Shown here: positions 1-8,285 of the stretch, piece after piece | Layout: every line of letters starts with the position of its first letter | Position numbering within the stretch: position 1 is the first letter of the stretch | From: an uncultured Oscillospiraceae bacterium | Lineage (GTDB): Bacteria; Bacillota; Clostridia; Oscillospirales; Oscillospiraceae | Direction of reading: 5' to 3' | Assembly (NCBI GenBank): GCA_947624385.1 | Contig: CANQJZ010000010.1 | Span: forward strand, 1-63,350 | DNA length: 63,350 bases | Translations under genes and position numbers: made by a program | The notes under the pieces: model-generated | Seen by the model: only the letters and a program-made list of their open reading frames with translations | What the model was told of the DNA's origin: nothing | Databases searched by the model: none

Positions 1-204
1 ATCATCTGGTAACGCTTCCATAATATCTCCAAAATCACATTTCAAATATTCACATATCGACAACAAGACAGGTAGCGTAACATTTTGATTTTTGCCAAGC
101 TTGGCAAATGTGCTTTTGCTTGCTCCGATAGCTTCTCGAAGCTCGCCCTTTTTCATATTTTTATCAATCAACAGCTTCCATAGTTTATTATAACTCACTC
201 GCAT
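1..204 (-). CDS. XRE-type HTH regulator, cut by the window edge
   Basis: The reverse strand reads ATG at 204 and stays open for 68 codons to the first base of the window, so the C-terminus is missing. The protein starts MRVSYNKLWKLLIDKNM and shows a Cro/CI-like helix-turn-helix around residues 15-50 (the KKGELREAIGASKSTFAKL stretch), the layout of small XRE regulators common on conjugative elements. A GAGGT ribosome site sits upstream and a good promoter lies at 240-268. It is far more AT-rich than the chromosomal core. It probably regulates the mobile element whose debris follows; the target is not known. Confidence 0.75.
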   Translation of the reverse strand, partial: MRVSYNKLWKLLIDKNMKKGELREAIGASKSTFAKLGKNQNVTLPVLLSICEYLKCDFGDIMEALPDD

Positions 205-239
205 TGGTTTACCTCATCAGCATTTTTTCTCTATTTTTT

Positions 240-268
240 ATTATATCGCCAAAAGTACAGAAAAGCAA
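240..268 (-). promoter_or_regulatory. Promoter of the XRE regulator
   Basis: On the minus strand a TTGCTT -35 (263-268) and a TATAAT -10 (240-245) are separated by 17 bases, upstream of the regulator start at 204. Confidence 0.6.
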
Positions 269-311
269 CATTTTGGTCTGCATATTCAAACTTTATTAAG
301 AAATATGTAGC

Positions 312-335
312 GAAGCCGCCTGTTTAGACGGCTTC
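312..335 (-). terminator. Possible terminator after the CHAP fragment
   Basis: A 7-bp stem (GAAGCCG/CGGCTTC) with a 10-base loop lies just past the stop of the CHAP fragment. No clean T-run follows on the minus strand, so this is weak. Confidence 0.4.
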
Positions 336-340
336 TGCTC

Positions 341-955
341 TTAATAGGCAGGACACCCATATCCATAAATGGAGCTGCTTCCAACCGTATATTGATTTTG
401 CCTGCAAGCGTCGCCAGAATTACCCTCCACGGTGTAAACAACACCGTTTTCGCATTTCTCTACAATTCCTACATGGTCAGCTTCTCCATCGCCTTCCCAA
501 TCAAAAAAGATAATATCGCCTGCCTGCGGCTCGTAGTTTCTGTCTTGCCATTGTCCGTTACCCTTAAACCAATTTGAGCCGTCCACGCAGCCAGAAAATT
601 TAGGGATAATCCCACTCTCAATATATCCGCATTGGTCGGCACACCATGACACAAAGCAGGCACACCATTCCACACGCCCATCAAAGCCATACCAACTCCA
701 ATAAGGCTGACCACCCTCATTGCCGAGCTGTGTTAAAGCGACCTCCACAATCGCTTGGTTAAAGCCGCTTGTAAACGCCCGCCCATATGGATAATACCGC
801 AGCACATGGGCGGGATACTGCGTGTCGCCATAGCTGTTCCAACCTAACCGTGCCGCCTGCATGGTGGAAAACTCCACCGCATTGGCATAGGAATAGCCGC
901 CATAGTTGGTCTTAGCCCACGAGATATATCCATTGCCGAAGTTATAACCCTGCAA
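341..955 (-). pseudogene. CHAP-domain lysin fragment of a conjugative element (CD1108-like)
   Basis: About 204 residues resemble the C-terminal part of CD1108-family mobile-element lysins, which open the cell wall during conjugation. A glucosaminidase/lysozyme-like tail (QGYNFGNGYISWAK... VLRYYPYGRAF, residues 1-65) is followed by a CHAP domain with likely catalytic Cys98 (EWCACFVSW), His161 (ADHVGIV) and the EGNS motif at 177-180. The frame has no proper start: the first in-frame TTG has no ribosome site and a stop lies eight codons upstream at 980-982. A well-supported start at 983 enters in a different frame. The large N-terminal part of the family is therefore gone, apparently by a deletion that joined another gene's start to this 3' end. 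The assignment is from pattern recognition. Confidence 0.7.
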
Positions 956-1147: not shown

Positions 1148-1579
1148 CAACTGCTCTCTGAGGACAATGTGGCTGGCAAGATCACCGACGAGCGGTTTGC
1201 ACGGATGAGCAAAAAGTATGAGGAAGAGCAGAAAGAACTGACCGAGAAGATCAAGACCCTGAAAGCGGAGATCGACAAGGCTGGCAGCCAAGCCGTAACA
1301 GCGGATATGTTCATCTCCACCGTCCGAAAGTACACCCGTGCGAAGAAGCTGACACCCCGTATGCTCAACGAGCTGATCCAGTACATAGAAGTCCATCAGG
1401 CTGAAAAGGTGGATGGCGTATGGGAACAGAAGCTGACGATCCACTATAACTGCATCGGCGTCATCGACATCCCCGCAGAGCTGTCGCTGCCTTATCCTGA
1501 AGTTTCCGTGAATACCCGGAAAGGCGTTACTGTTTGCTATGCTCCAAACGCCTTTGTAGCAAAAGAGGCCGGAGCATGA
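1148..1579 (+). pseudogene. C-terminal fragment of a large serine recombinase
   Basis: The frame is open from just after a TGA at 1145-1147 to TGA at 1577-1579 and encodes the carboxyl end of a large serine recombinase of the conjugative/mobilisable-element type. Recognisable features are the LLSEDNVAGKITDERFARM stretch, a coiled coil (EEEQKELTEKIKTLKAEI, about residues 30-55) and the RKYTRAKKLTPRMLNELI...IEVHQAEK block preceding the C-terminal beta segment. Full proteins are about 500-560 residues, so the catalytic Ser domain and most of the DNA-binding domain are missing. There is no start or ribosome site. It is a dead remnant that marks the former end of an integrated element next to tRNA-Leu. 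Confidence 0.8.
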
Positions 1580-3496: not shown

Positions 3497-4330
3497 TTAT
3501 CCCTCCGCCCAGCTGCCGGAGGACGTCTCGATCACGTCCGCGGTGACGGCGCTCTGCCGTTTGCGGCTGATCTCGCCCTCCAGCCGGGTGCAGTATTCCG
3601 TAGCGGCGTCATAGGCCGCCCGCATGGTCATCAGCGTAGCCGCCTGGGCGCCAAGCGCCGTTTGCAGCACCAGGTCGTAAAACATCGCGTGAAAGACCTC
3701 TTCCGCGCTTTCCGAGACGAACGCGTCGTGGTCCGGCTCGCACAGCACGCCGCTCTCCGGCCCGTCCGCCGCCTGGTCAACAGGGGGGAGCAGCTCGCTG
3801 ACCGACGGCGTCTGCGTCAGCATATTCACATACCGGGGGTAGACCACATGCACGGCGGACGCCTGTCCGGACCGGTGCAGCTGCAAGATATGGTCCAGCA
3901 GGGCGCTGCTTTCCTCGAAGGTAGGCTCGTCGCCCAGCACATATTCCCCCGCCATTGGCACGCCCCGGCTTTTAAAATGCCCCACGGCCTTTTTCCCGCA
4001 GGCGATCAGCAAATGGTCCTCCTGCGCGTCCAGGACCATGTCGGCGAACTTGAGCGTCTCCGCGTTGAAGCTGCCGCACAGGCCCTTGTTCCCGGCCATC
4101 ACCACGTAAAGGGGCGGCGCGTTCATATTCCACGCGCCGGCGGCCTCCAGAAAGTCCGGCCGGAACCGGCGAAACACCTCCCGGCACTGGCGGGCGAACT
4201 CGGCGAACTCGCCGTACTCGCCGTTCAGCCGGGAGAATTTCGCGGCCGACACGGTCCGCATCGCCTTGGTGAGCTTCTGGGTGGAGCGCACGCCCCGGAG
4301 CTGTTTTTTGAGATTTTGTATCGACGGCAT
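3497..4330 (-). CDS. atpG: F-type ATP synthase gamma subunit
   Basis: The central rotor shaft, 277 residues. The N-terminal coiled-coil helix (MPSIQNLKKQLRGVRSTQKLTKAMRTVSAAKF, 1-32), the Rossmann-like middle (PLYVVMAGNKGLCGSFN, about 90-107) and the C-terminal helix with the conserved ATLMTMRAAYDAAT...L segment (about 232-250) are all present. It sits between the fused b-delta-alpha gene and atpD, as in the standard order. Its ATG is 18 bases after the fusion stop. Confidence 0.95.
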   Translation of the reverse strand: MPSIQNLKKQLRGVRSTQKLTKAMRTVSAAKFSRLNGEYGEFAEFARQCREVFRRFRPDFLEAAGAWNMNAPPLYVVMAGNKGLCGSFNAETLKFADMVLDAQEDHLLIACGKKAVGHFKSRGVPMAGEYVLGDEPTFEESSALLDHILQLHRSGQASAVHVVYPRYVNMLTQTPSVSELLPPVDQAADGPESGVLCEPDHDAFVSESAEEVFHAMFYDLVLQTALGAQAATLMTMRAAYDAATEYCTRLEGEISRKRQSAVTADVIETSSGSWAEG

Positions 4331-4348: not shown

Positions 4349-6586
4349 TCAGGCCACGGTGTGTCTGTATTCTTCCAGCGCGGCCCGGATCTCCGCCAGC
4401 TCGTCCGCCGACTGCTTTTGTCCGGTCCGCAGCCGGTCTGCCACGGGGCCGTGTTTATCCTCAAAGAAGGCGAACAGCCCCCGCTCAAAGCTCTCCATGG
4501 CGTCCGGCTCCACGCCGTCGGCGTACCCGTCCGACACGGCGAACAGCAGCAGCGCCTGCTGCCAGTCCTCCAGGGGCCGGAACCGGCCCTGTTTCAGCGC
4601 CTCCATCAGCCGCGCTCCGGCGTCCAGCGCCCGTTTCGTGTCCGCGTCCATGTCGGCCCCCAGCTGTGTAAAGTCCGCCAGCTCCCGGTATTGGGCCAGC
4701 TTTGTGCGCAGACTGGCCGACATCTGCTTCATCAGCTTTGTCTGGGCCGCGCCGCCCACCCGGGACACGGAAAGCCCCACGTTGATGGCGGGCCGCTGGC
4801 CCTCGTGGAAAAGCTCGCTCTCCAAAAAGATCTGTCCGTCGGTGATGGAGATGACGTTGGTGGGGATGTACGCGGAGATATCCCCGGCCTGTGTCTCGAT
4901 GATGGGCAGGGCCGTGATGGACCCGCCGCCCAGATTATCCGACAGGTGTGCGGAGCGCTCCAACAGCCGGGAGTGGAGGTAGAAGATGTCCCCCGGATAT
5001 GCCTCCCGGCCCGACGGCCTGTGCAGCAGCAATGAAAGCTCCCGGTACGCCACCGCGTGCTTGGAAAGATCGTCGAACACGATGAGCGCGTCCCGGCCGG
5101 CGTACATGAAATACTCGGCCATGGCCATGCCGGCGAAGGGGGCCAGGTATTGGGTGGCGGCGGAATCGGACGCGGCGGCCGCCACGATGGTGGTGTATTC
5201 CAGCGCCCCGTACTGGGCCAGTCTTGCCCGTATCTCGGCGATGGTAGTCTCCTTTTGTCCGATGGCCACGTACACGCACACGGTGTTTTTGCCCTTCTGG
5301 TTGATGATGGCGTCCAGGGCGATGGCCGTCTTGCCGGTCTGGCGGTCGCCGATGATGAGCTCCCGCTGGCCCCGGCCAATGGGCACCATGGAGTCGATGG
5401 CCTTGAGCCCCACGTGCAGGGGCTTGTCCACCGGCGCCCGGTCCAGAATACCGGGGGCTCTACATTCCACCGGCCGCTTTTCCCTGGCGTCTATGTACCC
5501 CTCGCCGTCCACCGGGTCGCCGATGGGGTTCACCACCCGGCCCAGCAATGCCTCGCCCACGGGCACGGACGCGATGCGCCCCACCCGCCGGACCCGGCTG
5601 CCGCTCTCGATGGTCTCGTATTCGCCGAACACCACGCAGCCCACCCGTTCCGGCTGGATGTCCAGGACCATGCCCCGCTCGCCCCGGTCGAACTCCACCA
5701 CCTCGCCGTACATGATGTCGATGAGGCCGTCCATCCAGCATATGCCGTCGGATATCTGCAATACCCGGCCCAGCTGATAGATATGCAGCTTTGGCTCGAA
5801 CGTCCTTGCCTTCTGGGTGAACTCCTGCAATACCGCGTCCATGATCTCGTCGCTGGTGACGGGAGCGCGGCTGATGCTCTTTTCGTAATGATAAAGCTCC
5901 TCCGCCACGGTGTGGTCGTACACCGTGTCGCCAATGCGCAGGCGCACGCCGCCGATGAGCGTCGGGTCCACCAGCACCCACAGGGAAGTCTTGCCCTGTA
6001 CCGTAGCCAGCAGGTCGGTAGTGGCGTCGTCCACCTTTTTCACCAGCGCCGGGTCCAGCGGGTAGGTGGAGGTCAGCGTCACGTACAGCACCCCGTGATA
6101 GCGCAGATAGGCCATATCCCCCGGCGTCAGCCGGATATGGGCCAGGATGTCGTCGATCTGGTCGGCCTCTTTGGTCCGCATGCGGCTCCGGTACGGCTCT
6201 TTGGAGAACGTCTCGGCCACTTTTTCCTTCATGACCTGGAAGAACTTGCGCTTTGTCTTCTGGATCATGATCCGGTGTACCTCCCGGCACTCCCGCTCAC
6301 CGAAGGCCTCGATCTCGGCCAGGCTGGCGCGGGTGGCGGCCTGTTCCTGGGCCAATTTTTCCCTGGCGGCCTGCCCGGCCGTTTCCAGGCGCTCGTCGCC
6401 TATGGCGGCCCGGTCCGGGTCGGGCATGACCGGCGGCGCGGCGTGCTCGATGGCCTCCGCCTCGTCCAGCTGCCGCAGGATACGGGCCCGGCGGTCGGTG
6501 AAAATACGCCGGAGCGTCTTTCGCCCCACCAGGGCCAGCAGTCCCGCCAGCAGCAGGAAGTTGATGATAACGTACTGAATTTTCAT
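4349..6586 (-). CDS. Fused ATP synthase b-like / delta C-terminal / alpha subunit
   Basis: One uninterrupted 745-codon frame. Residues 4-21 form a membrane helix (VIINFLLLAGLLALV), and 22-125 are a charged helical stretch typical of subunit b. Residues 165-230 match the delta C-terminal domain (VLYVTLTSTYPLDPALVKKV, then VDPTLIGGVRLRIGD). From about 245 to the end is a full-length alpha subunit with GEALLGRVVNPIGDPVDG (344-361), GDRQTGKT Walker A (413-420) and the usual C-terminal domain. The six-helix delta N-terminal domain seems missing or very short. It occupies the place of atpH-atpA between atpF and atpG, and no other delta or alpha gene is present. An internal ATG at 5842 (residue 249) falls where a normal alpha would start, preceded by a weak GACGAG. 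Start ATG 6586 follows the atpF stop by 6 bases. Confidence 0.93.
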   Translation of the reverse strand: MKIQYVIINFLLLAGLLALVGRKTLRRIFTDRRARILRQLDEAEAIEHAAPPVMPDPDRAAIGDERLETAGQAAREKLAQEQAATRASLAEIEAFGERECREVHRIMIQKTKRKFFQVMKEKVAETFSKEPYRSRMRTKEADQIDDILAHIRLTPGDMAYLRYHGVLYVTLTSTYPLDPALVKKVDDATTDLLATVQGKTSLWVLVDPTLIGGVRLRIGDTVYDHTVAEELYHYEKSISRAPVTSDEIMDAVLQEFTQKARTFEPKLHIYQLGRVLQISDGICWMDGLIDIMYGEVVEFDRGERGMVLDIQPERVGCVVFGEYETIESGSRVRRVGRIASVPVGEALLGRVVNPIGDPVDGEGYIDAREKRPVECRAPGILDRAPVDKPLHVGLKAIDSMVPIGRGQRELIIGDRQTGKTAIALDAIINQKGKNTVCVYVAIGQKETTIAEIRARLAQYGALEYTTIVAAAASDSAATQYLAPFAGMAMAEYFMYAGRDALIVFDDLSKHAVAYRELSLLLHRPSGREAYPGDIFYLHSRLLERSAHLSDNLGGGSITALPIIETQAGDISAYIPTNVISITDGQIFLESELFHEGQRPAINVGLSVSRVGGAAQTKLMKQMSASLRTKLAQYRELADFTQLGADMDADTKRALDAGARLMEALKQGRFRPLEDWQQALLLFAVSDGYADGVEPDAMESFERGLFAFFEDKHGPVADRLRTGQKQSADELAEIRAALEEYRHTVA

Positions 6587-6592
6587 GTCATG

Positions 6593-7009
6593 TCACTTTG
6601 TCAGGCTCTGGGCGAAGGACACGGCCAGCTCGTCCGCCTGTTCGCTCAGCCTGGTCAGCAGCTTTTCGCAGTCCGCCTCCGCCTTCACGCTGTACCGGTC
6701 CACCTTGCGCAGACGGGTCTCGTTGGCCGCCTTGAGCAATGCCCGGTCGTCGGCCCGCAGCTTTTCCATCTCGGCCTTCAGCTCCTTTTGCTGCCTGGTA
6801 AGGCGCTGTGCCCGGTGGCTGTCAAGCTCGGCGGCGTATTCCGCCTCCATGCGCTCATACTCCGCCTTTTTTGCCGTGGCCTTATCCAGGCGCTCCTGAC
6901 GCTCGTCCAGCGTCCGGAGCACCGGCTTGAAAAGCAAATTGCGCAATATCGCTGCCAGCAGCAAAAAGCATATAACGGTCCACAGCAGGACCGATACTTG
7001 GATGGTCAT
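6593..7009 (-). CDS. atpF: F-type ATP synthase b subunit
   Basis: 138 residues: an N-terminal membrane helix (about 5-25, VLLWTVICFLLLAAILRNLL) followed by a long charged coiled coil (LFKPVLRTLDERQERLDKAT ... KAEMEKLRADDRALLKAANE). This is the standard peripheral-stalk b topology, slightly shorter than the usual 160-170. The next gene carries a second b-like anchor fused to delta and alpha, so the stalk may be a b/b' heterodimer as in cyanobacteria or mycobacteria. Start ATG is 7 bases past the atpE stop. Confidence 0.93.
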   Translation of the reverse strand: MTIQVSVLLWTVICFLLLAAILRNLLFKPVLRTLDERQERLDKATAKKAEYERMEAEYAAELDSHRAQRLTRQQKELKAEMEKLRADDRALLKAANETRLRKVDRYSVKAEADCEKLLTRLSEQADELAVSFAQSLTK

Positions 7010-7016
7010 AGCGGCC

Positions 7017-7244
7017 TCAGATCTTGGACACCAGCATGAACGCGATCAGCAGACCGTAGATGGTCAAAGCCTCCATGAGGGCCAGGGCGACGATGAGGGT
7101 GGAGCGGATGTCCTTGGCCGCGTCCGGCTGGCGGGCGATGCTCTCCATGGCGCTCCTGGCGGTGATGCCCTGGCCGATGGCCGGGGCGATGGTGCTGGCC
7201 GCGATGGCGATGGCGGCGGCGATGGCGATGATCTCGGATCTCAT
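7017..7244 (-). CDS. atpE: F-type ATP synthase c subunit, proton type
   Basis: 75 residues forming two membrane helices joined by the polar loop ARQPDA. The ion site reads [10 protein letters not shown] in helix 2 with GQG in helix 1. This is the motif of chloroplast and cyanobacterial H+-binding c-rings. The Na+ signature needs Ser/Thr directly after the glutamate (E-S-T); here Ala follows, so proton coupling is the better reading. The ribosome site AAAGGAGATAT precedes the ATG. Confidence 0.95.
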
Positions 7245-7274: not shown

Positions 7275-7949
7275 TTATTCCAATTCCGTAGCTTCTTCCA
7301 GATAGATGGCCGTGAGCATGGTGAACACCATCGCCTGCAGCGCGCAGAACAGCAGGCTCAGGATCATCATCACCAGCGGCACCCCGACGGGGAAGATGTG
7401 GTAAAGCTCCTCGGTGACCATCTCCTCGCCGAAGATATTGCCGAAAAGCCGCAGCGCCAGTGACGCGGGCTTGATGAACTCGTCCAGCAATAAAAGCGGC
7501 AGCATGAAGAACATGGGGCTCACGAACCGCTTGAAATAGTGCTTTGTCCCCACCCGCAGACCGGCGATCTGCAAGAACAGGAACGTGACCACGCCCAGCC
7601 CCGCCGTCACCGACAGGGAGGAGGTGGGGGCCTTCAACCAGGCCGTCTGCCCCACGCCGGGGAACAGCCCGGAGTAGTTGGCGAAGATGATGAAGATGAA
7701 CAGCGACGCCAAAAACGAAAAATACTTCCTGGCCCTCTCCCGGCCCAGAATGCCGGTGAGAAACCCGTCCAGATATTCCACGCCCGCCTCCACCGCGTTC
7801 TGGAACCGGCCGGGCCGCTCCTTCAGGCACCGCCGCACCAGCAGAGAGATGACCAGCGCGACCGCCAGCATGACCCACATCATGACCACCTCGCCGGTCA
7901 CGTCCAGTATCCCGCCCAGGCGTATCACCACAGGGGAGCTCTCACCCAT
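7275..7949 (-). CDS. atpB: F-type ATP synthase a subunit
   Basis: 224 residues with about five membrane helices. The proton-channel arginine lies in ASLALRLFGNIFGEE (about residues 160-175), and the last helices carry the QAMVFTMLTAIYL segment, both family hallmarks. The N-terminus is shortened compared with E. coli AtpB, as is normal for Gram-positives. It overlaps the upstream atpI-like gene by 8 bases, indicating coupled translation. Confidence 0.95.
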   Translation of the reverse strand: MGESSPVVIRLGGILDVTGEVVMMWVMLAVALVISLLVRRCLKERPGRFQNAVEAGVEYLDGFLTGILGRERARKYFSFLASLFIFIIFANYSGLFPGVGQTAWLKAPTSSLSVTAGLGVVTFLFLQIAGLRVGTKHYFKRFVSPMFFMLPLLLLDEFIKPASLALRLFGNIFGEEMVTEELYHIFPVGVPLVMMILSLLFCALQAMVFTMLTAIYLEEATELE

Positions 7950-8256
7950 CGTCCCTGTCCTCCTTTTTCCGCTGTGTACCGGTGAGCCGGACCAGTCTTG
8001 GTGTGAACCACAGCAGCGGCAGCGTCACCCCCAGGCACCCGCCCGCCAGCAGCCATGCCGTGTCCCAGGGCGTGCGCGGCCCCAGCACCAGCAGCGCCGC
8101 CAGAAACAGCACCTGCACGATCTGTTTTACGCTCTGAAAGGCCACGTAGCCCTCCGGCTTTTTTTCCAGCACCCGCCGGCCGGCCAGATACCCGGCCCCG
8201 GCCAGACCCACGCCCACGGCGAAGGCCAGCAGCGCGCCGACTATATCGTTTTCCAT
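7942..8256 (-). CDS. atpI: AtpI-like small membrane protein
   Basis: 104 residues from ATG 8256 (GAGGG ribosome site 8 bases upstream; a longer version would begin inside the promoter). Four predicted membrane helices (about 5-22, 38-55, 60-75, 80-95), short loops and a basic tail ending KKEDRDDG. Position as first gene of the atp operon and topology fit AtpI, the poorly conserved c-ring assembly/Mg-import helper. Sequence similarity to known AtpI is not obvious by eye, so the name rests on context. Confidence 0.7.
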   Translation of the reverse strand: MENDIVGALLAFAVGVGLAGAGYLAGRRVLEKKPEGYVAFQSVKQIVQVLFLAALLVLGPRTPWDTAWLLAGGCLGVTLPLLWFTPRLVRLTGTQRKKEDRDDG

Positions 8257-8285
8257 CCGACACACCCTCTTTTTATACAAAACGG

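What the first reader, a model, noticed from the sequence alone, without database searches (positions are those of the whole stretch)
4349..6586. A single frame fuses ATP synthase b-like anchor, delta C-terminal domain and alpha
The frame is continuous for 745 codons and replaces the separate atpH and atpA genes. The domains read in order: one membrane helix and b-like coiled coil, a delta C-terminal domain with the LIGGVRLRIGD motif, then full alpha with Walker A. The delta N-terminal domain that normally caps F1 seems absent. F1 has three alpha subunits, so a stable fusion would place three membrane-anchored arms around one head, unlike the single b2-delta stalk of known bacterial F-type enzymes. 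b-delta fusions are known in mycobacteria; I know of no described b-delta-alpha fusion.
Basis: partly seen in the sequence, partly recalled or inferred. Interest (0 to 1): 0.92.

Follow-up and report, generated by a model that had tools for sequence, protein, structure and literature searches.

The report
ATP synthase with fused stalks
A bacterium related to animal-gut microbes appears to make an ATP synthase in which a membrane-anchored stalk is fused onto each of the three alpha subunits, a natural step beyond a laboratory-engineered multi-stalk enzyme that can make ATP from a weaker proton gradient.

Summary
Window 4349-6586(-) is one open frame of 745 codons: a b-like membrane helix and coiled coil, the C-terminal half only of delta, then complete alpha. 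It lies in an otherwise complete F-type operon and is the only delta and the only F-type alpha found in this genome. It is not an assembly accident: the same b'-deltaC-alpha architecture occurs in 31 further distinct sequences, forms one clade with them, is under purifying selection, and shows no enriched internal start. I saw it in 17 of 394 genomes of the window's order and in ten named public MAG contigs, not elsewhere in class or phylum samples. Neighbouring architectures form a graded series: separate full delta, separate deltaC, deltaC-alpha, b'-deltaC-alpha. Foldseek ranks the three chains of PDB 9JC1 first: an engineered deltaC-alpha PS3 enzyme with up to three stalks and a subunits and a doubled H+/ATP ratio. 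Its authors noted a natural deltaC-alpha fusion in Acidaminococcus. The further b' fusion, tying every stalk covalently to alpha, was not found in my literature searches. Best reading: a natural F-type ATPase with three locked stalks and probably several a subunits. Stalk number, a number and H+/ATP are untested.

The parts
4349..6586 (-). b'-deltaC-alpha fusion gene, 745 aa
6122..6586 (-). b'-like part, residues 1-155: membrane/stalk helix 2-48, break 49-64, helices 65-128 and 132-148
   Evidence: profile match to b and b-delta chains; AlphaFold2 secondary structure
6395..6442 (-). low-confidence, Pro-containing break in the b' helix, residues 49-64
   Evidence: pLDDT 51 and 59 in blocks 51-60 and 61-70; alignment A3
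5867..6109 (-). delta (OSCP) C-terminal domain, residues about 160-240, with LIGGVRLRIGD
   Evidence: PF00213 residues 162-237 = profile 98-171 of 172; strand/helix order in the model
4352..5854 (-). complete alpha part, residues about 245-745, its N-terminal helix (247-261) retained
   Evidence: (TIGR00962 705.5 bits, cut-off 484.45)
5327..5350 (-). Walker A GDRQTGKT of alpha
   Evidence: translation
6593..7009 (-). separate b subunit, 138 aa, proposed partner of b'
   Evidence: PF00430 E 8.6e-7, 29.5 bits, cut-off 28
7017..7244 (-). c subunit, 75 aa
   Evidence: PF00137
7275..7949 (-). a subunit, 224 aa
   Evidence: PF00119; SLALRLFGN arginine kept
7942..8280 (-). atpI-like protein, 112 aa
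   Evidence: PF03899 E 9e-4, below its cut-off
3497..4330 (-). gamma subunit, 277 aa
   Evidence: PF00231
2093..3493 (-). beta subunit, 466 aa
   Evidence: PF00006
1819..2103 (-). epsilon subunit, 94 aa, beta-sandwich only, no C-terminal helical domain
   Evidence: PF02823; class median 91 aa

Best explanation
The gene encodes the only alpha subunit of a working F-type ATP synthase/ATPase. Each alpha carries its own delta C-terminal head and, through it, its own membrane-anchored b'-type arm. With the delta N-terminal domain gone, nothing occupies the central dimple of F1 and limits the enzyme to one stalk. The three alphas therefore give three stalks, each a b' arm paired with a copy of the separate short b (138 aa). 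By the precedent of the engineered enzyme, each stalk can bring an a subunit, so protons per turn become Nc x Na and ATP can be made at low proton motive force. Shown here: sequence architecture, sole-copy status in the genome as held, conservation, purifying selection, no enriched internal start, fold match to the engineered fusion. Inferred: that the fusion stays uncut, three stalks, b/b' pairing, more than one a subunit, a raised H+/ATP ratio, and that it runs as a synthase at low pmf.
For: Domain order and absence of the delta NTD. Sole F-type alpha in the own genome and in 14 of the 17 order genomes with this architecture at the threshold used. 32 distinct sequences on one side of a branch, SH-aLRT 100. 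dN/dS of the window with G009, G032 and G017: b' 0.32-0.44, deltaC 0.14-0.18, alpha 0.13-0.17. A start codon with SD at the junction occurs in 2 of 32, against 13 of 224 background windows in alpha and 27 of 72 canonical alphas. Foldseek ranks 1-3 are the three delta-alpha chains of 9JC1, TMt 0.87-0.89. Engineered precedent: up to three stalks and a subunits, H+/ATP 5.8 against 3.0, proposed NH+ per turn = Nc x Na. Fo arginine and c glutamate kept in 31 of 31 loci where a and c were in view. b is shorter in this class (median 139 aa against 163 in deltaC-alpha operons), as expected if b' alone is tied to the head.
Against: No expression, mass or structural data. Proteolysis could release ordinary alpha. 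The b' arm has a Pro-containing low-confidence break and evolves two to three and a half times faster than alpha by dN/dS in the three pairs above, so it may be a looser tether than a canonical b. Only a monomer was modelled. The engineered enzyme averaged about two stalks biochemically and 1.26 on grids, so three need not be filled. The pdb_via list (50 best rows by Z) does not contain 9JC1.
Confidence: 0.68

Rival explanations
1. The fusion is a maturation device. It is translated as one chain to enforce 1:1 delivery, then proteolysis trims two (or all) alphas, leaving a conventional single-stalk enzyme.
For: Full delta(N+C)-alpha fusions also exist in the order: four (L163-L166) and two more (L211, L212). 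Three delta NTDs cannot all sit at the single central site, so at least those enzymes need another solution. The deltaC-to-alpha linker has lower model confidence (pLDDT 78 and 63 in blocks 231-240 and 241-250).
Against: The delta NTD, the part that imposes one stalk in the engineered system, is absent in all 32 b'-deltaC-alpha and all 32 deltaC-alpha sequences as classified, which makes little sense if delta is cut free and used once. No conserved cleavage motif was seen by eye in A3; not systematically tested.
Confidence: 0.15
2. Three b' arms assemble, but only one is paired with b and a; the other two are passive tethers, so the H+/ATP ratio is normal.
For: A single a and a single b gene, as in ordinary operons; b' is hinged and variable; the canonical Fo holds one a-b2 unit (recalled).
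Against: In the engineered enzyme every stalk seen carried an a subunit, and a c10 ring accommodates three (PMC12229609).
Confidence: 0.2
3. Internal initiation makes separate alpha, so F1 holds a mixture of fused and plain alpha.
For: The window has an ATG 24 codons before the alpha profile start (SD match 3 of 6) and a TTG at -20 (4 of 6).
Against: Those codons are not conserved. In 3 of 32 loci (L185, L036, L045) no ATG/GTG/TTG lies from -60 to 0. Start plus SD is at background level: 2 of 32 against 13 of 224 here, and 7 of 32 against 39 of 224 in deltaC-alpha genes.
Confidence: 0.06
4. Assembly, frameshift or pseudogene artefact.
For: The window is from a fragmented assembly (65 contigs).
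Against: The same frame in 31 other distinct sequences; purifying selection; matching operons around it.
Confidence: 0.01

Closest known systems
Engineered deltaN-less delta-alpha fused Bacillus PS3 FoF1 (Ueno et al. 2025, PMC12229609; PDB 9JC1)
   Same: delta NTD removed and delta CTD fused to the alpha N-terminus; sequence aligns through the junction (window 188-741 to 21-573) and Foldseek ranks its three chains 1-3. The engineered enzyme also lacks the epsilon C-terminal domain, as does the window's 94-aa epsilon.
   Different: The natural gene adds a covalent b' arm; the engineered one binds b2 non-covalently and shows few triple-stalk particles (8%).
Natural deltaN-less delta-alpha fusion of Acidaminococcus fermentans and UniProt G4Q3K6, A0A1I2C5T3 (named in PMC12229609)
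   Same: deltaC-alpha fusion without the delta NTD; same kind as the 32 deltaC-alpha sequences here.
   Different: No b' fused, as far as the text describes; I did not have the sequences. My tree puts the window's clade apart from the main deltaC-alpha clade (AU p 0.022 against one clade).
Mycobacterial b-delta fusion (7JG5 chain d and others)
   Same: b-like anchor fused ahead of delta; best PDB match of the b'-deltaC profile, E 9.2e-13.
   Different: 445 aa chain with the complete delta and a separate alpha, one per enzyme (recalled).
FliH of the flagellar export ATPase; E subunit of V/A-ATPases
   Same: FliH is described as a b-like coil plus delta-like C-terminal domain that binds the N-terminal helix of FliI (PMC9114704 passages); V-ATPases have a 1:1 ratio of AB pairs to stalks (PMC6384691 passages).
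   Different: Separate proteins, no covalent link to the ATPase subunit.
N-ATPase
   Same: F-type variant without a separate delta (recalled).
   Different: Different operon; the window scores 598.5 against a TIGR03324 cut-off of 750.5.

Membership tests
F-type ATP synthase | a, b, c, alpha, beta, gamma, epsilon genes in one operon | tested here: met
F-type ATP synthase | alpha equivalog over curated cut-off | tested here: met
   TIGR00962, 705.5 bits against 484.45
F-type ATP synthase | essential Fo arginine (a) and carboxylate (c) | tested here: met
   31 of 31 loci of this class where a and c were in view; which residues are essential is recalled
F-type ATP synthase | single separate full-length delta/OSCP | tested here: not met
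   only OSCP match in the genome is the half domain in the fusion; hence a variant
Multi-stalk FoF1 (deltaN-less delta-alpha) | delta NTD absent | tested here: met
Multi-stalk FoF1 (deltaN-less delta-alpha) | delta CTD fused to alpha N-terminus, no second F-type alpha | tested here: met
Multi-stalk FoF1 (deltaN-less delta-alpha) | more than one stalk and a subunit per enzyme, raised H+/ATP | not testable with these tools
   needs purified enzyme
Mycobacterial b-delta | b fused to complete delta, alpha separate | tested here: not met
   delta NTD missing and alpha fused
N-ATPase | alpha scores over the N-ATPase model | tested here: not met
   TIGR03324 598.5 against 750.5
FliH/V-ATPase E-like stalk | detectable homology of the arm to FliH or E | tested here: inconclusive
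   no FliH or E chain in the 60 shown of 67 matches of the A3 profile at E<=10; FliH-like genes in three genomes matched OSCP weakly

The most novel reading that the evidence does not exclude
A natural F-type ATP synthase that converged on a V-ATPase-like stator: three peripheral stalks, each covalently tied to its alpha so that none can fall off, carrying up to three a subunits. Protons per ATP would then approach Nc (roughly three times the usual ratio), the lowest gear I know of for making ATP from a weak gradient. It would be what Ueno et al. said had still to be developed: a multi-stalk enzyme whose stalks stay bound.
Probability: 0.45. Interest if true: 0.95.

Novelty: new variant of a known kind. 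Interest (0 to 1): 0.82.

Why it matters
As far as I know, the number of stalks, and with it of proton channels, was taken as one in F-type enzymes until a 2025 lab design deleted the delta NTD and fused the rest to alpha. In that design few particles kept three stalks on grids, and the authors wrote that a multi-stalk enzyme with stably bound stalks is needed to test the proposed NH+ = Nc x Na rule (PMC12229609, section 13). The bacteria described here seem to have evolved just that, alongside relatives with plausible intermediate architectures. The operon offers a natural test of the rule and a possible explanation of how cells with weak ion gradients could still make ATP.

Tried and rejected
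Considered and rejected: assembly error (31 further distinct sequences); a separate delta elsewhere in the genome; internal translation start; N-ATPase. Three weak OSCP matches in frames of 258-323 aa (G150, G214:C10, G223) first looked like b-deltaC proteins without alpha; each lies directly upstream of, or overlaps the start of, a beta-like ATPase frame and I read them as FliH/FliI (no FliH model was run). I looked for ion pumps in the own genome: no match for PF03116, PF00361 or PF03977 (these models ring in 4, 13 and 2 of 14 control genomes); the genome is 93% complete, so absence is weak.

Results against or beside my reading: the pdb_via list (50 best rows by Z) does not show 9JC1, although Foldseek ranks it first. 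The test against one clade of all deltaC-alpha and b'-deltaC-alpha sequences is only moderate (AU p 0.022, group chosen after seeing the tree). dN/dS of b' is 2.0 to 3.4 times that of alpha with G017, G032 and G009; with G034 the values are b' 0.10, deltaC 0.15, alpha 0.08; with G055 synonymous sites are saturated in b' and alpha and the linker gives 0.64. A short epsilon is not peculiar to this class: canonical operons L132 and L133 of the order have 87 and 85 aa. Subunit lengths use the last start codon before the profile match and are approximate. One search gives the G005 frame as 757 aa where my stop-to-stop frame is 594; I used mine. Nine of the 25 deltaC-alpha places counted rest on frame length alone. 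The tree used 126 of 154 distinct alphas (28 of 72 canonical ones left out); sequences with the same alpha core were merged before counting. The AlphaFold2 alignment held 31 of the 32 b'-deltaC-alpha and 18 of the 32 deltaC-alpha sequences; alignment A3 held 30 of 32.

Literature: nine searches in all. Seven sought fusions or multiple stalks (31, 32 and 49 returned no paper) and two sought FliH and three-stalk enzymes. None listed a b-delta-alpha fusion by title or abstract, and I saw none in the passages read; the library lacks most subscription papers and all preprints. Seen: PMC12229609 abstract, passages and sections 9, 11 and 13 in full (not its supplement); PMC5709465, PMC5706428, PMC6384691, PMC9244403 and PMC9114704 passages only; all others listing only.

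Full report
WHAT IS THERE. Window 4349-6586 on the minus strand is one uninterrupted frame of 745 codons. Pfam finds the C-terminal half of delta (PF00213, residues 162-237, profile positions 98-171 of 172, E 2.9e-9) followed by all three alpha domains (273-739); the b-like start is weak against Pfam alone (E 0.016). A profile of 30 homologous N-terminal parts settles that: its best solved-structure matches are mycobacterial b-delta (E 9.2e-13) and PS3 b (E 5.5e-9) for the first 120-145 residues, and delta/OSCP C-terminal domains for the rest. The surrounding operon, all on the minus strand, is atpI-like, a, c, a separate 138-aa b, the fusion, gamma, beta and a 94-aa epsilon that lacks the C-terminal helices. 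In the own genome, 93% complete, the fusion is the only OSCP match at E<=1 and the only F-type alpha.

IT IS REAL AND CONSERVED. Among 60 relatives, full-length copies occur in 6 of 34 same-genus genomes and in 2 of the other 26. In a wider draw, 17 of 394 genomes of the order have it, one of them cut by a contig end; in 14 of the 17 it is the only match at E<=1e-120, so the only F-type alpha by that measure. A scan of the genome-contig collection gave ten named public contigs of this kind (L036-L045; architecture checked), labelled Oscillospiraceae, Clostridia, Bacillota and, once, Chloroflexi, several from animal gut or faeces; L043 has the same alpha core as G022 and was merged with it. The scan needs exact short peptide matches and kept the best 80 loci, so this is a lower bound. 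A b'-deltaC query found only the window's own genome among 391 genomes of the class, and no other stop-free frame of this size stood in the listed part of a 398-genome draw of the phylum. After merging identical alpha cores I had 154 distinct alphas: 72 canonical, 4 full delta-alpha, 32 deltaC-alpha, 32 b'-deltaC-alpha (window included), 9 with a separate short or divergent delta, and 5 with no delta in view. On a tree of 126 of them the 32 b'-deltaC-alpha sequences lie on one side of a branch with SH-aLRT 100. Pairwise dN/dS of the window with G009, G032 and G017 is 0.32-0.44 for b', 0.14-0.18 for deltaC and 0.13-0.17 for alpha, so all three parts are maintained, b' least strictly.

A GRADED SERIES. 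Operon by operon I found: canonical b, delta, alpha (L132-L134); a separate gene for the delta C-terminal domain alone, 72-74 aa (L135, L208-L210, L213, L214, L218); full delta fused to alpha (L163-L166, L211, L212); deltaC fused to alpha (L124-L131 and others); and b' plus deltaC fused to alpha beside a short separate b. Using OSCP in 197 order genomes I count, by match range and frame length and leaving out G000: 76 separate full deltas, 1 separate 161-aa frame (G041), 7 separate deltaC-only genes in 6 genomes, 3 full delta-alpha, 25 deltaC-alpha (16 of them checked in fetched operons), 6 b'-deltaC-alpha, 3 FliH-like and 2 unclear. So 34 of 118 ATP-synthase delta places are joined to alpha. 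The nearest relative outside the clade, L046 (a named MAG whose order I could not match with the window's), has a separate 319-aa b-like protein directly before a deltaC-alpha gene; the b-like protein itself ends in two repeats that resemble deltaC (hhalign probability 90, but no significant HMMER match and no Pfam OSCP match; suggestive only). DeltaC-alpha fusion seems to have arisen more than once (AU p 0.022 against one clade). In the phylum draw, 17 genomes outside the order show stop-free frames across the junction among the listed matches (one, G975, cut short; none fetched as operons), so delta-alpha fusion is not confined to this order, whereas the b' addition was seen only in the order and in the named contigs above.

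IS IT TRANSLATED AS ONE CHAIN? A start codon with a good Shine-Dalgarno match lies within 45 codons before to 5 after the alpha profile start in 2 of 32 b'-deltaC-alpha genes, the same rate as in control windows inside alpha (13 of 224), against 27 of 72 canonical alphas; for deltaC-alpha genes it is 7 of 32 against 39 of 224. Three b'-deltaC-alpha genes (L185, L036, L045) have no ATG, GTG or TTG in the 60 codons before it. Internal initiation is therefore unlikely as a shared mechanism. Proteolytic clipping cannot be tested here.

STRUCTURE. AlphaFold2 with a 49-row alignment gives mean pLDDT 82.6: a helix 2-48, a low-confidence break 49-64, helices 65-128 and 132-148, a delta-CTD-like strand/helix unit 166-239, the alpha N-terminal helix 247-261, and the alpha body. 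Foldseek against solved structures ranks the three fused chains of 9JC1 first (577-578 columns, TMt 0.87-0.89, 49-50% identity); phmmer aligns window residues 188-741 to its 21-573 straight through the junction. The pdb_via list of 50 rows does not include 9JC1.

MECHANISM. 9JC1 is a Bacillus PS3 enzyme in which residues 2-104 of delta were removed and the rest fused to alpha by a short linker (PMC12229609, passages). Its authors report up to three stalks and three a subunits, a and b at 2.2 and 1.8 times wild type relative to gamma, H+/ATP 5.8 against 3.0, and an equilibrium pmf of 68 mV against 133 mV at one reaction quotient; they conclude that the delta NTD limits the enzyme to one stalk and propose NH+ per turn = Nc x Na. 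Particles with 0, 1, 2 and 3 stalks were 15, 51, 26 and 8%; they blame detachment and ask for a version whose stalks stay bound. The window gene has the same two changes, delta NTD lost and deltaC fused to alpha, and a third that should prevent detachment: a b-type membrane arm in the same chain. Because the F-type alphas of this genome all come from this gene as far as the assembly shows, an uncut product places an arm on each alpha. The separate b is shorter here (median 139 aa) than in deltaC-alpha operons (163) or canonical ones (162), fitting a partner that no longer has to reach the delta head. The Fo residues that I recall as carrying protons are kept in 31 of 31 loci in view, so Fo should work. 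Epsilon lacks its C-terminal domain in the 30 loci of the class in view (80-112 aa, median 91), as it was deliberately in the engineered enzyme, though some canonical operons of the order have a short epsilon too (L132, L133).

PHYSIOLOGY (inference). The own genome shows no NQR2/RnfD, complex-I-like antiporter or OAD-beta match, but a membrane pyrophosphatase in two pieces, one starting at base 1 of its contig, and what I read as an A/V-type ATPase. A low-gear synthase would suit a cell whose gradient comes from weak sources such as pyrophosphate; in reverse it would pump more ions per ATP. I give this little weight.

WHAT IS KNOWN. The same paper names a natural deltaN-less delta-alpha fusion in Acidaminococcus fermentans and two UniProt entries, so the deltaC-alpha class is in print as a predicted multi-stalk enzyme. 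b-delta fusions are described for Gordonia and some mycobacteria (PMC5709465). FliH is described as a b-like coil with a delta-like head (PMC9114704), and V-ATPases have three stalks (PMC6384691), so the proposed stator works like theirs without being theirs. I found no report of b-delta-alpha (searches, with 47 and 48 on related enzymes).

VERDICT. A real, conserved, apparently functional variant of a kind proposed only in 2025, one step beyond the engineered design. The stoichiometry claim is testable with the operon in a laboratory strain.

Noticed in passing
L046:3904-4860: b-like protein of 319 aa with two C-terminal repeats that may resemble the delta C-terminal domain (hhalign only), directly before a deltaC-alpha gene; sister to the window's clade in the alpha tree.
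   Followed up: partly
L167:5041-7065: Alpha fused behind two tandem delta C-terminal domains (deltaC-deltaC-alpha); PF00213 matches two stretches.
   Followed up: partly
L207:5902-6684: Separate delta with a second C-terminal domain in tandem (NTD-CTD-CTD, 251 aa).
   Followed up: no
L163-L166, L211, L212: Complete delta (NTD and CTD) fused to alpha; three delta NTDs could not all occupy the single central site of F1, so how these assemble is unexplained. The NTD match in L211 is weak.
   Followed up: partly
L208 and L209 (one single-contig genome, G259): Two F-type operons of the same layout and nearly equal profile scores, each with a 72-aa deltaC-only gene, in one genome; in L209 the alpha reading frame is split into two overlapping frames (76 and 445 codons).
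   Followed up: no
L198 and L201: Gamma and beta matches fall in one frame (649 and 819 codons), a possible gamma-beta fusion; in L198 beta is split over two frames.
   Followed up: no
window 1169-1579 and 1673-1759: DUF4368 fragment (a domain I recall from large serine recombinases) beside a tRNA-Leu(gag), next to the end of the atp operon: possible scar of an integrated element.
   Followed up: partly
window 7017-7244: The c subunit has Ala at positions where I recall a Gly-rich helix motif (APAIGQG), with MEALTIYG around the carboxylate; ring size and coupling ion unknown.
   Followed up: no
window 6104-6130: A kept T-x-G-D-x-x-Y-L motif (residues 154-161; T, G, D, Y, L invariant in the 30 rows of A3) sits between the b' coil and the deltaC domain; I know no counterpart in ordinary b or delta.
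   Followed up: no
G000:C50 (L229) and G000:C6 (L230): Membrane pyrophosphatase in two pieces on two contigs (probably one gene split by the assembly); C50 also holds the two A/V-type-like ATPase matches.
   Followed up: no
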